This document shows, piece by piece, positions 53,272 through 63,625 of a stretch of DNA of 64,000 bases; positions within the stretch are counted from its first letter, which is position 1; each line of letters begins with the position of its first letter. This stretch comes from Shewanella chilikensis (GTDB lineage: Bacteria; Pseudomonadota; Gammaproteobacteria; Enterobacterales; Shewanellaceae): the NCBI RefSeq assembly GCF_002836945.1, contig NZ_NIJM01000001.1, forward strand, positions 1 through 64,000, written 5' to 3'. Under the pieces are notes generated by a model. It saw only the letters and a list, made by a program, of their open reading frames with translations. It did not search any database and was not told the DNA's origin. A program made the translations under genes and the position numbers.

Positions 53272-53859
53272 TTATTCCTCTGTGATATTCACATCCATGC
53301 CACTACGCTGCAACTCAAGCTCCATACGCTGAAAATTCAGTTGCAGCTTAGGCAAAGTGTCGGCCGAAATCTTCCCTACCAAGGCTCTTAACCTGGTTGT
53401 ACCGACACCACGACTCAACTCTTGCTTTTCCATTTTTTCAATCAGCTGGGCAGATTCAATTCTGAACCTGCGGATAGCGGTCAGGATCTCAGCCGGTGTT
53501 TCCAGCGCATTGGCCGAGTAATACATGTTTTGCCAAACAAAATCACTGAGCTGGGGATGCAATGACCTCAAGTCCAGTGGTCTCTGTTTATCTATGTCCG
53601 CCATATAGGCTTCCAGTTCATGCAAGTTATCCCGCACTTCATCATACAAGGCACGCTGCAGATGATAGTTATTCTGGGTATTAACCAGAGAGTCAAACTT
53701 AATCGCCTGTGACAGCCCCTGCTGCGCAGCCAGATAAACCCCCAAAACCGTTGCCAGCACCATCAACAGCTGACTCACCCAGAAGCTGGTTTTCACCAGC
53801 TCACTATTGTCAAAATGAATTTTACGACCGTTTGATACCGGCTCAGATTTCCTTTCCAT
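53272..53859 (-). CDS. Single-pass membrane protein, paralogue B
   Basis: A 195-residue protein of unknown family. A short cytoplasmic leader (IHFDNSELVKTS) precedes a transmembrane segment (FWVSQLLMVLATVLGVYLAA), and a helical extracytoplasmic domain follows. It is clearly paralogous to the gene at 53951: both share the leader, the membrane segment and AAQxGLSQAIKFDSL, NNYHLQ and ETPxxILxxxRRF. I chose ATG 53859, which has GGGAG 5 bases upstream. It ends 3 bases before the rhomboid gene. Confidence 0.75.
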   Translation of the reverse strand: MERKSEPVSNGRKIHFDNSELVKTSFWVSQLLMVLATVLGVYLAAQQGLSQAIKFDSLVNTQNNYHLQRALYDEVRDNLHELEAYMADIDKQRPLDLRSLHPQLSDFVWQNMYYSANALETPAEILTAIRRFRIESAQLIEKMEKQELSRGVGTTRLRALVGKISADTLPKLQLNFQRMELELQRSGMDVNITEE

Positions 53860-53950
53860 AGCAACTCCCAATGATGGTATTTAACCTGTCATTGTGAGTC
53901 AGAAAAACCTGGTTATCCGTCGGCCAATTCCCAAGTAACAACCTGAGTTG

Positions 53951-54532
53951 TCAGTTAACGTCGATCCCGGCGCGCTTTAGCTCATCGGCCATCTTCTTAT
54001 AACTCTGTTCCAACTTGGGTAAGGTGTGGGTTTCCACCTCTTCAATCAGGGATCGCAGCTGTTTGGAACCAAAGCTGGGGCCATAGAACTTACGTTCAAT
54101 CTTGCCGACAATATCAGCAGACCCCATATAGAAACGGCGGGCGCCTGAGAGAATATCGCTTGGGGTTTCCAAGGTATAGGCCGAGTACTTCATATTTTCC
54201 CAGATAAAGTCAGCCATAACCGGATGATATTCTTTAATATTATAGGGTTTTTCTTTCTCAATAAGCTCAGTGTACGCAGTCATCACCGCGACATTGTCTT
54301 TCAGCTCCTCATAGAGAGAATGCTGCAGATGATAATTGTTTTGCATATTGGTCAGGCTATCAAACTTAATCGCCTGTGACAGACCTTCCTGCGCTGCCAA
54401 ATAAACCCCGGCAACCGTAGCGATAATCATAAAAATCTGGCTGACCCAAAAGCTGGTTTTCACCAACTCCTGATTATCGAATCTGATTTTTTTTGCACCC
54501 CGACGCTGACTTGGTTCTTGATTGACTTCCAT
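53951..54532 (-). CDS. Single-pass membrane protein, paralogue A
   Basis: A 193-residue protein with the same layout as the gene at 53272: basic leader (RRGAKKIRFDNQELVKTS), membrane segment (FWVSQIFMIIATVAGVYLAA), then AAQEGLSQAIKFDSLTNMQN and a helical domain. The two are a tandem duplication that has diverged; I estimate around half identical positions by eye. It is separated from paralogue B by about 90 bases with no terminator, so all three genes may be one transcript. Function unknown. Confidence 0.75.
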   Translation of the reverse strand: MEVNQEPSQRRGAKKIRFDNQELVKTSFWVSQIFMIIATVAGVYLAAQEGLSQAIKFDSLTNMQNNYHLQHSLYEELKDNVAVMTAYTELIEKEKPYNIKEYHPVMADFIWENMKYSAYTLETPSDILSGARRFYMGSADIVGKIERKFYGPSFGSKQLRSLIEEVETHTLPKLEQSYKKMADELKRAGIDVN

Positions 54533-54632: not shown

Positions 54633-54866
54633 TCAACCGATATTCACATTACCACGCCCACCAGATTACCACTGCAGTCAACTACATCGCCGATTCAGGC
54701 AGCGGGTTTACCATAGATAAAAACACTGCCCGAACCCGTGGCAATGGTACGAGGGTGCGGCGGATGTTTGGGCTTGTCGTAAGGAAGCAATGAGTCGCCC
54801 TGAGGCGCCTGCGGTGATGTTGCCCTGGGTTTGACCTTCGATAGAGATATAACATGGTGTTGGCAT
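54633..54866 (-). pseudogene. Decayed hcp/PAAR fusion remnant
   Basis: From ATG 54866 (AAGGA seven bases upstream) the first 21 codons read MPTPCYISIEGQTQGNITAG plus Ala, the N-terminus of a T6SS Hcp. The sequence then jumps to the C-terminal half of a PAAR-repeat protein in another frame: HPRTIATGSGSVFIYGKPAA, then a TGA where the family has Arg, then IGDVVDCSGNL, and after one missing base GRGNVNIG and the stop. The Hcp frame itself ends after 52 codons. So a deletion has joined two genes, and a nonsense change and a frameshift followed. It lies directly downstream of the T6SS block. Confidence 0.8.
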
Positions 54867-54914
54867 GGTTAGTTCCTTTTACTGTTGAATGAGTGATAAA
54901 ACCCCATCACCCAA

Positions 54915-54930
54915 CGCCAGAAGCATGCCA
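54915..54930 (-). promoter_or_regulatory. Candidate sigma-54 promoter of the hcp remnant
   Basis: Minus-strand TGGCATGCTTCTGGCG has the invariant GG and GC 10 bases apart (GG-N10-GC). The -24 part TGGCATG and -12 part TGGCG match the sigma-54 consensus with two or three changes. It ends about 50 bases before the hcp ATG. The sigma-54 activator VasH is encoded at 62069, so the site fits the known VasH-hcp control in V. cholerae. Confidence 0.6.
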
Positions 54931-55084
54931 AATCGTAACATACTGTTTTACAAAAACATCCAAACCCACCTCCTCTCTCCAGGCCAGTTTTTGCCCAAAT
55001 TGAGTGGCCCAAAAGAGTTGCCAAAAGCCGCCAAAGGCCAGAGCTCAAGAGCGAATACAAGGGCCAACCGGGTGAATTCTTGTA

Positions 55085-56320
55085 TTACATAACAACATCT
55101 TGAACGTCGGCCGCTTCTTGGACATTAGCCCTATCTGAGCCCGCCGCCATTGGCGCCTTATCTGAACCTGAGGCGGTTTGGACTGCCGGGTCATTTGTAA
55201 CGCCAGAAGCCTGAGTGAGCCCCAAACTCTGGGCCAACAAAGTGCGCTTGATCAGCAGGGATTTCAGTTGCCTGTCCAGCAGTGTCAGCTCCTGAGCTGC
55301 CCGCTCATTTTGCTGTTGCTTGAGCAGCTCATCGATGAAGTAGGCTCTGGCCAACACGGGGGACAGGCTGCTGGCATACTCGGCCATATCCCGTGACTGA
55401 CGCTGCAGCGCACTGAGTTTGTTGGCATCAAGCCCCTGCCATTGCTGTAACTCTTTGCTTAAGTTGGCCGCTCGGGTGCGACTGGCGGCAAAACGCTGGA
55501 AATACTTGTCCAGCTCCAACAGATAATCTACCTGCTCGGGATAAACATATGGCTCATCGTTGGCCAAAGGTGCGGCGGCAAATAGCTGGTCTATCTTCTG
55601 CCACAGCGGCAATGCCGTTTCAGTCGGCAACTGGGTCACCTGCTCGGGTGGCTTGGGCGCAAATCGCTCCGGCCAGAACTTCTGCCCTATGACCAGCCCC
55701 AAAGGTTCGGCAAAGTGTCCCGCCGTCAATGCCAGCAACAAGAGGATTAGTCCCAGCGGCCAACTCAGCCCCTTGGAATTAGCCTGCTGCTGAGCACTTG
55801 TGGCAACAGCGGGTCGCTTGGCCGGTTGTTTAACGCCATCAATCTTGTCGAAGATTTGAAAGCCGAGCGCATCCAGGTTTGGCATCTGCTTGGGTTGACG
55901 CACCTGCATCAGCTCAAACAGCTGCTGACAGGCATATTCACAACGATACCACTCACGGATATTGCCTTCAGTAGCCTGCATATCCTTGAGCTCCGGCAAC
56001 AACTTACCTATGGCCCAGTTCAGTATTTCAGCGCACTTTTCCGGGCTGATAGTGCCCATCTCTTTCGAGTGCGCCAACACGGTTAACAGTAACTCCAGTC
56101 CGGATGCCAAACCGGCAATGCCGCGGGTCTTGGCCGCAGCTACCGAAAAGTAGCTGGCCGCCAGTAGATCCACCCCATCTGTCATCGCCAGGGTGGCTGC
56201 GAGATCATAGACCTTTTCCCAATCCGTCCCACCACTGAAGGGAGATTGGCGCCGGTTGATCTCACTACGCATCTGCTGATAGCGGTTATCTTCCCGAAGC
56301 TGAGCCGGTGCTGCGGTCAT
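55085..56320 (-). CDS. vasL: Type VI secretion protein VasL
   Basis: A 411-residue T6SS protein. The N-terminal ImpA-related domain starts LREDNRYQQMRSEINRRQSP and GTDWEKVYDLA. A transmembrane helix (WPLGLILLLLALTAGHF) lies mid-protein. The C-terminal VasL-type domain (SRTRAANLSKELQQWQ) and a Ser/Ala-rich tail follow. It is the gene after tssM, as in V. cholerae VCA0121. I chose ATG 56320; a TTG at 56374 would add 18 residues and has a poor ribosome binding site. Confidence 0.82.
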   Translation of the reverse strand: MTAAPAQLREDNRYQQMRSEINRRQSPFSGGTDWEKVYDLAATLAMTDGVDLLAASYFSVAAAKTRGIAGLASGLELLLTVLAHSKEMGTISPEKCAEILNWAIGKLLPELKDMQATEGNIREWYRCEYACQQLFELMQVRQPKQMPNLDALGFQIFDKIDGVKQPAKRPAVATSAQQQANSKGLSWPLGLILLLLALTAGHFAEPLGLVIGQKFWPERFAPKPPEQVTQLPTETALPLWQKIDQLFAAAPLANDEPYVYPEQVDYLLELDKYFQRFAASRTRAANLSKELQQWQGLDANKLSALQRQSRDMAEYASSLSPVLARAYFIDELLKQQQNERAAQELTLLDRQLKSLLIKRTLLAQSLGLTQASGVTNDPAVQTASGSDKAPMAAGSDRANVQEAADVQDVVM

Positions 56321-56405
56321 TCTGAACCATCCGGCATTCACTGTTGTTTGCTGTATCAACTTGGTACACCTCAAATTCCATTAAGTTGAGTCCCACAGGG
56401 GAATT

Positions 56406-61415: not shown

Positions 61416-62069
61416 TCACCACCTGCAAGATTGACGCAGTGGCTTGAGCGCACTGCCAAGTTCTCGGGTATCAAACTGTAAGCCGTCTATCGCCTTGTTG
61501 GCCGAACGCAGGCGCACATCGTCGCCGCGGATCAGGGCTTTCATCACCTGAATGGCCGGCAGGCCGCGGCCGGTGCGGAAGATATAGCCGGTATCATCAC
61601 TGAGCCAGCGCTGCGACTGCTGCTCAATGCCGTTGATCTGCAGCCCTACCTGAGCCCAGCCATCTTCCAGCGCCGTGGGCAACATCAGCTCGACCCGGCT
61701 GATATCGTCGATGCAGCTGAGCATAAGTACCGGACGTGGTGGCAAGGCGCCTATGGCGGGCGCGGTCAACCAGAGATCTTCTACGGCATCCGCTTGATGC
61801 CCTGCAATAAAGGCCATGCCCTGTTGACGATTTTTCTCGGATGCCATGGCGACCTGAAACGCCTCGGGATAAGGGCTGCTGTCAGCGGTTTGCTGCGGCA
61901 CCACGGTCGCCACCGGAGTGTTGAACAGCTCATCGAAACAAGCCAGTCGCTCCAGTCTGGAAGGGATTTGGGTACAAGCCTCTACCTTGGCCACTGTGTC
62001 GTCCGAGGCCTGAGCCGAAGCGGCCATCCCCCACAGGCATAAAAATATAACGCCTTGAATCCTTGACAT
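61416..62069 (-). CDS. vasI: Type VI secretion-associated protein VasI
   Basis: A 217-residue exported protein with a signal peptide (AASAQA, about residue 21). CTQIPSRLERLACFDELF is the typical VasI/TagO motif with paired cysteines. Two more cysteines (LSCIDDISRVEL and LRQSCRW) suggest disulfides. It overlaps the stop codon of vasH by one base and precedes tssA by three bases. Function not known in detail. Confidence 0.88.
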   Translation of the reverse strand: MSRIQGVIFLCLWGMAASAQASDDTVAKVEACTQIPSRLERLACFDELFNTPVATVVPQQTADSSPYPEAFQVAMASEKNRQQGMAFIAGHQADAVEDLWLTAPAIGALPPRPVLMLSCIDDISRVELMLPTALEDGWAQVGLQINGIEQQSQRWLSDDTGYIFRTGRGLPAIQVMKALIRGDDVRLRSANKAIDGLQFDTRELGSALKPLRQSCRW

Positions 62070-63625
62070 TATTCGTTAATCTCCAACTTCTGGCATTTGT
62101 GGGAAAAGGTGCGTTTCGGCATTCCCAGACTGACAGCCGCCTTGGCTCTGTCACCGTTGCAGGCCTTCAATCTGGCGCTGATCACCGCCCGCTCAAACTG
62201 AGCTACCGCCAGCCTGAGATCGGAAATGGCCTCAAACTCCTGCCCCTCTTCGGTAGGCAATTGCGGCTTGGGCATTTCCGAATCCGTTGCTGGCAAAGAC
62301 GCAGTATCTATCTCGACACCGTCGGCGGTGAGGGCGCAGGCATAATCCAGCATATTGCGCAGCTCGCGGACATTGCCCGGGTAGCCGTGGTTCTTCAGCC
62401 GATTGAGGGCGCTGAAGCGGATGCCGGGGATCTGTCGCTGCTGACTCTGATTGAACAGCGCAATAAAGTGCGCCGCCAAATCGGGGATATCCTCGAGCCG
62501 CTCCCTGAGCGCCGGTACCTGCAGTGGAAACTGGCACAAGCGGTAGAAAAGATCGCGACGGAACTCGCCACTGTGGATCTGCTCCTTGAGGTTCACATGG
62601 GTAGCGGCCACCAAGCGAAAATCGGCGTAGATCTCCTTGTTGCCTCCCAGTGCCCGGTAGTGTCCTGTTTCCAATACCCGCAGTAACTTGGACTGCAGAT
62701 TCAAAGGCATATCACCGATTTCATCTAAAAAAAGCGTGCCCTGGTGCGCCTGGGCTATCAGCCCCTGCTTATCCTTGTCGGCACCGGAAAAGGCCCCCTT
62801 GGCATAACCGAACAGCTCGGACTCCAGCAGGTTTTCCGGTATTGCGGCGCAGTTGATTGCCACGAAAGGTTTGCCGCTGCGCTCGGAAAAGTCGTGTATC
62901 GCCCGGGCCACCAGTTCTTTGCCCGTCCCCGTTTCACCCTGCACCAACACAGACAACTGCGAGGCCGCGCCGCGCACTATCTCCTGCCTGAGCTGACTCA
63001 TGGCCTGACTGTCGCCCACCAGGTTCTTGCCAAGTTGTTGCATGGCATCATGTTGTTGCTGCTGGCGACGCAGTTCATCGAGCGAGCTCGACAGCTGAGA
63101 CTGATCTGAATTCTGCCGCAACAACTTATCCAGCAACTGCCAGTGGCGCATAAACACGGCGGCATATTGCTGCCAGTCCTGACGGACAAGCAGACCACTG
63201 CCCTGTTGCTCGGCCAGACGCAGGCAGAGGATAGCCCGCACATGACCCTCATGGCTCAGCGGGAAAAGCAGCAGTGCCTGCTCCTTGCCGACCCGATCGC
63301 ACAGGCTGACAAAACCGCTGTGCTCCTGCCAGTAGGCGAGCCGGGCCTTGTTCAGCAGCATGGCTTCGCCTGTCTGCAACACATGGGCGAACGGATGTCG
63401 AAAGTCGGTAACCGCCAAACAAAGCGCCTGCAATGAGATCCCTTCACACAGGCCAAGGCAGGACAGTGGCTTGAGTTCCCGACCATCGAAGCCCGGCGCC
63501 AGAAACAGATGGTTATCCAGCCCCAGCTCCAATGCCAAAGTATCGAGAAACTGCTGCAACAGCCCATCAAACTGCTGGCATTCCAGCAATTTTGCCGCCT
63601 GTTCCAACCACTGCTCAGTCACCAC
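62069..63625 (-). CDS. vasH: Sigma-54-dependent T6SS activator VasH
   Basis: A 518-residue enhancer-binding protein. The N-terminal GAF-like domain (about 1-170) is followed by the AAA+ domain: Walker A GETGTGKE, the sigma-54 contact loop GAFSGADKD (Ser for the usual Thr of GAFTGA), Walker B GTLFLDEIGD and an R-finger region. The Fis-type HTH lies at the end (ARLKACNGDRAKAAVSLGMP). It activates hcp and similar operons with RpoN in V. cholerae; a sigma-54-like site precedes the hcp remnant here. GTG start overlapping the clpV stop. Confidence 0.93.
   Translation of the reverse strand: MVTEQWLEQAAKLLECQQFDGLLQQFLDTLALELGLDNHLFLAPGFDGRELKPLSCLGLCEGISLQALCLAVTDFRHPFAHVLQTGEAMLLNKARLAYWQEHSGFVSLCDRVGKEQALLLFPLSHEGHVRAILCLRLAEQQGSGLLVRQDWQQYAAVFMRHWQLLDKLLRQNSDQSQLSSSLDELRRQQQQHDAMQQLGKNLVGDSQAMSQLRQEIVRGAASQLSVLVQGETGTGKELVARAIHDFSERSGKPFVAINCAAIPENLLESELFGYAKGAFSGADKDKQGLIAQAHQGTLFLDEIGDMPLNLQSKLLRVLETGHYRALGGNKEIYADFRLVAATHVNLKEQIHSGEFRRDLFYRLCQFPLQVPALRERLEDIPDLAAHFIALFNQSQQRQIPGIRFSALNRLKNHGYPGNVRELRNMLDYACALTADGVEIDTASLPATDSEMPKPQLPTEEGQEFEAISDLRLAVAQFERAVISARLKACNGDRAKAAVSLGMPKRTFSHKCQKLEINE

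What the first reader, a model, noticed from the sequence alone, without database searches (positions are those of the whole stretch)
54633..54930. Hcp/PAAR deletion chimera with an intact start and a sigma-54-like promoter
The first 21 codons of hcp and the C-terminal end of a PAAR gene are joined, with the PAAR part then broken by a stop and a frameshift. The ribosome binding site and a GG-N10-GC element remain. This marks the ancestral end of a T6SS auxiliary module (hcp, effectors, PAAR) that has been deleted. A residual 52-residue Hcp-N peptide may still be made under VasH control.
Basis: partly seen in the sequence, partly recalled or inferred. Interest (0 to 1): 0.6.

Follow-up and report, generated by a model that had tools for sequence, protein, structure and literature searches.

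The report
Scar of a deleted T6SS module
In this Shewanella genome a roughly 20-kilobase block of type VI secretion genes has been deleted from the end of the secretion cluster, leaving a short dead fusion of the first gene (hcp) and the last (PAAR) behind a promoter that keeps its core but has lost most of its probable activator-binding sites; it is an ordinary, well-documented deletion scar.

Summary
On the minus strand, 54866-54804 is hcp codons 1-21, joined to roughly the last 56 codons of a 94-codon PAAR gene ending at 54633. The PAAR part has an in-frame TGA (54697-54695) and a one-base frameshift (54656/54655). Sister species show what was lost. G085 (complete genome) and G065 (S. carassii) keep hcp beside VasL and an intact PAAR before the same downstream gene. 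In G085 about 20.6 kb lies between: two hcp-vgrG units, adapters, a VasX-type effector, immunity-like genes and PAAR. In S. indica KJW27 the whole cluster is gone but an intact orphan PAAR frame remains. The PAAR piece drifts neutrally (15 private changes in 164 nt, 10 non-synonymous or stop). The T6SS core is otherwise complete, and two other hcp copies lie at contig ends. The sigma-54 core (GG-N10-GC) is kept, but the VasH-control claim is weakened: intact Shewanella hcp promoters examined carry three phased 16-bp palindromes (GGGCAA-N4-TTGCCC); the scar keeps one, with two mismatches. No selection on the 52-residue peptide was detected. Verdict: a real but ordinary deletion scar; the candidate enhancer array is the most useful by-product.

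The parts
54804..54866 (-). hcp 5' fragment, codons 1-21 (MPTPCYISIEGQTQGNITAGA)
   Evidence: 92% DNA identity over 195 bp (54805-54999) to hcp copies of G085
54633..54813 (-). PAAR 3' fragment (about codons 38-94 of 94), with TGA at 54697-54695 and a one-base frameshift at 54656/54655
   Evidence: Pfam PAAR_motif E 5e-7; alignment to three intact orthologues
54804..54814 (-). deletion junction; CCGCAGGCGC-like imperfect 10-bp overlap alignable to both hcp and PAAR
   Evidence: overlapping BLAST pieces 54999-54805 and 54814-53050, alignment
54708..54866 (-). residual 52-codon frame from the hcp start
54873..54880 (-). Shine-Dalgarno-like AAAAGGAA
   Evidence: read directly; conserved in intact copies
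54915..54930 (-). sigma-54-like -24/-12 element TGGCATGCTTCTGGCG (GG 54929-54928, GC 54917-54916)
   Evidence: 15/16 identical in the intact hcp promoters of G085 and G065
54981..54996 (-). sole remaining, degenerate copy (2 mismatches) of the 16-bp palindrome GGGCAA-N4-TTGCCC; the other two copies are lost in a gap of about 40 nt
55085..56374 (-). VasL-like (ImpA_N) gene, left flank of the scar
   Evidence: Pfam ImpA_N; orthologue adjacent to hcp in G085, G065 and G010
53951..54532 (-). membrane-protein gene, right flank of the scar; follows PAAR in G085, G065 and G030

Best explanation
The feature is a deletion scar and pseudogene. A terminal T6SS module (hcp, vgrG, adapter, VasX-type effector, immunity-like genes, second hcp-vgrG unit, lipase-like gene, PAAR) ended the T6SS cluster in the ancestor. 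A deletion of about 20 kb, in one or more steps, joined hcp codon 21 to PAAR at about codon 38, probably by illegitimate recombination at an imperfect short similarity. PAAR carries a stop and a frameshift, and the upstream activator array has collapsed. The product is at most a 52-residue peptide with no Hcp fold. The core apparatus stays intact and most likely uses Hcp and VgrG-PAAR proteins from orphan modules elsewhere in the genome. Shown: anatomy, synteny, decay and core completeness. Inferred: the recombination mechanism, the order of events, loss of activation, and supply from orphan modules.
For: Both ends of the intact module are at the scar and nothing in between: BLAST of the window against G085 gives 56483-54975 and 54999-54805 to VasL and hcp1, then 54814-53050 to PAAR and downstream, about 20.6 kb apart in G085 (genes). 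G065 keeps the PAAR end contiguous with 6.8 kb of the module at 97% to G085, and hcp beside VasL. The more distant G010 also has VasL-hcp-vgrG-adapter-effector-PAAR. PAAR is intact in G085, G065 and G030. Private changes in the PAAR piece: 15 of 164 (9 N, 1 stop, 5 S) against 1, 1 and 5 in the intact copies; the flank gene has 16 S to 2 N, Fisher p = 0.0014. T6SS core genes match their Pfam families. Other hcp copies sit at contig ends C59 and C71, and PAAR genes on C72 and C96.
Against: The genome is a 114-contig draft and hcp is a repeat that breaks contigs, so a misjoin has to be considered. But the joined sequence itself carries lesions (stop, frameshift, lost array, private substitutions) that no intact copy has. 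Only one genome per species is held, so the scar has not been seen in a second isolate.
Confidence: 0.93

Rival explanations
1. Assembly chimera: the assembler wrongly joined an hcp copy to a PAAR region.
For: Other hcp copies of this draft end at contig ends.
Against: The overlap at the joint is only about 10 imperfect bases, the hcp fragment differs from the C59 and C71 copies at several sites, and the fused piece has private decay not present in any copy.
Confidence: 0.03
2. Functional remnant: the 52-residue peptide is still made and selected, for example as a signal read by VasH in place of Hcp.
For: Start, Shine-Dalgarno and sigma-54 core are kept; the hcp piece has few changes (1 private in the 38 alignable nt).
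Against: The rate difference against the PAAR piece or the leader is not significant (p 0.32 and 0.46); the rest of the frame is out-of-frame PAAR sequence; the activator array is lost.
Confidence: 0.03
3. Promoter capture, compatible with the scar reading: the hcp promoter now drives the two membrane-protein genes at 53951-54532 and 53272-53871.
For: The first gene starts about 330 nt downstream of the hcp start, and no terminator or sigma-70 match was found between.
Against: The presumed enhancer sites are lost; the gene pair stood directly behind PAAR before the deletion as well.
Confidence: 0.12

Closest known systems
hcp-vgrG-effector-PAAR auxiliary modules of T6SS (VasX-type effector, DUF4123 adapter)
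   Same: Both ends are homologous to such a module, which stands at this site in G085 and G065.
   Different: Everything between hcp codon 21 and about PAAR codon 38 is missing, and PAAR is broken.
sigma-54/VasH-type (Sfa2) hcp promoters (P. aeruginosa: PMC8855297)
   Same: -24/-12 element ahead of hcp; a VasH-like activator gene is in the cluster (62069-63625).
   Different: The putative activator array is reduced from three palindromes to one degenerate copy.
S. indica KJW27 (G030) orphan PAAR
   Same: A scar of T6SS loss at the same right flank.
   Different: There the whole cluster is gone and the PAAR frame is intact.

Membership tests
Hcp (PF05638) | Hcp domain able to form the tube | tested here: not met
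   Only 21 of 172 codons remain; the Pfam search of the genome does not report this place
PAAR (PF05488) | PAAR motif homology | tested here: met
   32.2 bits, over the cut-off of 27
PAAR (PF05488) | intact open frame | tested here: not met
   N-terminal part lost, TGA and frameshift
T6SS core cluster | core genes present and uninterrupted next to the scar | tested here: met
   TssA, B, C, F, G, J, K, L, M, a ClpV-like AAA+ protein, Fha, VasH and VasI match Pfam families; tssE is present as an uninterrupted 142-aa frame but was not scanned
sigma-54 promoter | GG-N10-GC at -24/-12 | tested here: met
   54929-54916, conserved with intact copies
VasH-activated hcp promoter | upstream activator sites | tested here: not met
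   array of three palindromes at intact copies, one with two mismatches here; that VasH binds them is inferred
VasH-activated hcp promoter | transcription dependent on rpoN and vasH | not testable with these tools
   needs RNA data

The most novel reading that the evidence does not exclude
The scar still acts as a promoter with an intact sigma-54 core but without its enhancer: it produces a low-level transcript that reads into the downstream membrane-protein pair, so that the deletion rewired those genes to the T6SS regulon.
Probability: 0.1. Interest if true: 0.4.

Novelty: new member of a known kind. Interest (0 to 1): 0.25.

Why it matters
It documents stepwise loss of T6SS parts at one chromosomal site in close species: full module, module lost with core kept, and cluster lost with PAAR kept. 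Comparing the broken and intact promoters also exposed a three-palindrome array at the Shewanella hcp promoters examined, a concrete candidate for the VasH binding site; a 2016 paper listed VasH among regulators with unknown binding sites (PMC4888284).

Tried and rejected
Assembly chimera (rejected because of private decay in the joined piece). Selection on the hcp fragment (no significant rate difference). Gene conversion of the hcp piece from the C59/C71 copies (rejected: the window shares the G085-type bases where these differ). A published VasH site matching the palindrome was sought and not found in the held papers; two papers looked up by id were not held. A paper on a deleted hcp-PAAR auxiliary cluster was sought without result. 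Naming the window's own species directly was not possible: the genome-contig scan returned only S. indica and S. carassii.

Full report
What is there. The window is contig C26:1-64000 of a 4.4-Mb draft genome with 114 contigs. On the minus strand the T6SS cluster runs from tssB (C26:75453) to the VasL-like gene (55085-56374). Behind it lie the hcp start (ATG 54866, 21 codons), a PAAR 3' part ending at 54633, and then a gene for a small membrane protein (53951-54532).

Check of the observation. The 21 codons encode the same residues as the hcp copies of G085, and 195 bp including the leader match at 92%. The second half is PAAR by Pfam (E 5e-7, one TGA inside) and by alignment to intact PAAR genes in G085, G065 and G030. 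The stop (54697-54695) and the one-base gap (54656/54655) are private to the window. The joint falls in an imperfect 10-base overlap alignable to both parents.

What is missing. In the complete genome G085 the VasL orthologue ends at C1:940795 and the downstream gene starts at 962018. Between them stand hcp, vgrG, a 343-codon frame in the position of an adapter, a 1195-residue protein with a VasX N-terminal domain, a run of related membrane-protein genes that look like immunity genes, a gene weakly like DUF6708, a second hcp, a second vgrG with a C-terminal extension, a DUF4123 adapter, a lipase-like frame, a DUF2931 gene and PAAR (lipase-like and immunity-like are my reading, not tested). About 20.6 kb of this is absent from the window. 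G065 keeps the same ends, though its contigs break at repeats. The more distant G010 has VasL-hcp-vgrG-adapter-effector-PAAR too, so the arrangement is old. In G030 the entire cluster is missing, but an intact 94-codon PAAR remains next to the same downstream gene, and no Hcp is found in the genome. PAAR has therefore been the end point of loss twice at this site.

Decay. Over 164 alignable positions of the PAAR piece the window has 15 private changes (9 non-synonymous, 1 stop, 5 synonymous) plus the gap; G030, G085 and G065 have 1, 1 and 5. The downstream gene has 16 synonymous to 2 non-synonymous private changes in the window; the contrast gives p = 0.0014. The PAAR piece is therefore evolving without constraint. 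For the hcp piece no difference from the leader or the PAAR piece could be shown, so the residual peptide has no evidence of selection; the piece is too short for a strong test either way.

Promoter. The -24/-12 element TGGCATGCTTCTGGC is identical to that of the G085 and G065 hcp promoters next to the main cluster. Upstream, the intact hcp copies examined in the window's genome, G065, G085, G066 and G089, and with one to two mismatches in G010, have three 16-bp palindromes GGGCAA-N4-TTGCCC spaced about 19-22 bp apart. Pairs of exact copies occur in only 5 of 117 genus genomes searched; the loci from these genomes lie upstream of hcp, and the reversed-pattern control gave none. This fits an activator array for the sigma-54 activator VasH, whose gene is in the cluster (62069-63625), but binding is inferred. 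In the scar about 40 nt with two of the three sites are gone and the last has two mismatches. The claim of VasH control is thus weakened, though basal activity is not excluded.

Consequence. The T6SS core genes of the window's genome are uninterrupted and match their families. hcp copies at the ends of C59 and C71 and PAAR genes on C72 and C96 show that orphan modules remain; contig breaks at hcp prevent a full reading. The most likely state is a working apparatus that has lost one effector module, not a lost T6SS; this is inferred.

Verdict. It is an ordinary deletion scar of a known kind of module; the regulatory half of the interpretation needs correction, and the promoter comparison gives a testable candidate for the VasH site.

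Noticed in passing
upstream of hcp in G000 C59:136628-136684 and C71:25425-25481, and in G085, G065, G066, G089 (L073-L086): Three phased palindromes GGGCAA-N4-TTGCCC at intact hcp promoters; candidate VasH enhancer sites.
   Followed up: partly
L063:11110-11394 (G030, S. indica KJW27): Intact orphan PAAR frame left after loss of the whole T6SS cluster; no Hcp found in that genome.
   Followed up: partly
G085:C1:925590-927020: Insert of about 1.4 kb with a transposase-like frame near the start of tssJ, with an 11-bp overlap that may be a target duplication; the same genes are uninterrupted in the window's genome.
   Followed up: no
window 53272-54532: Two paralogous membrane-protein genes without Pfam or NCBIfam match; relatives in 38 of 117 genus genomes, including ones without T6SS, often next to a zinc-ribbon rhomboid gene.
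   Followed up: partly
L079 (G065:C20): hcp promoter with a tandem duplication of the sigma-54 region.
   Followed up: no
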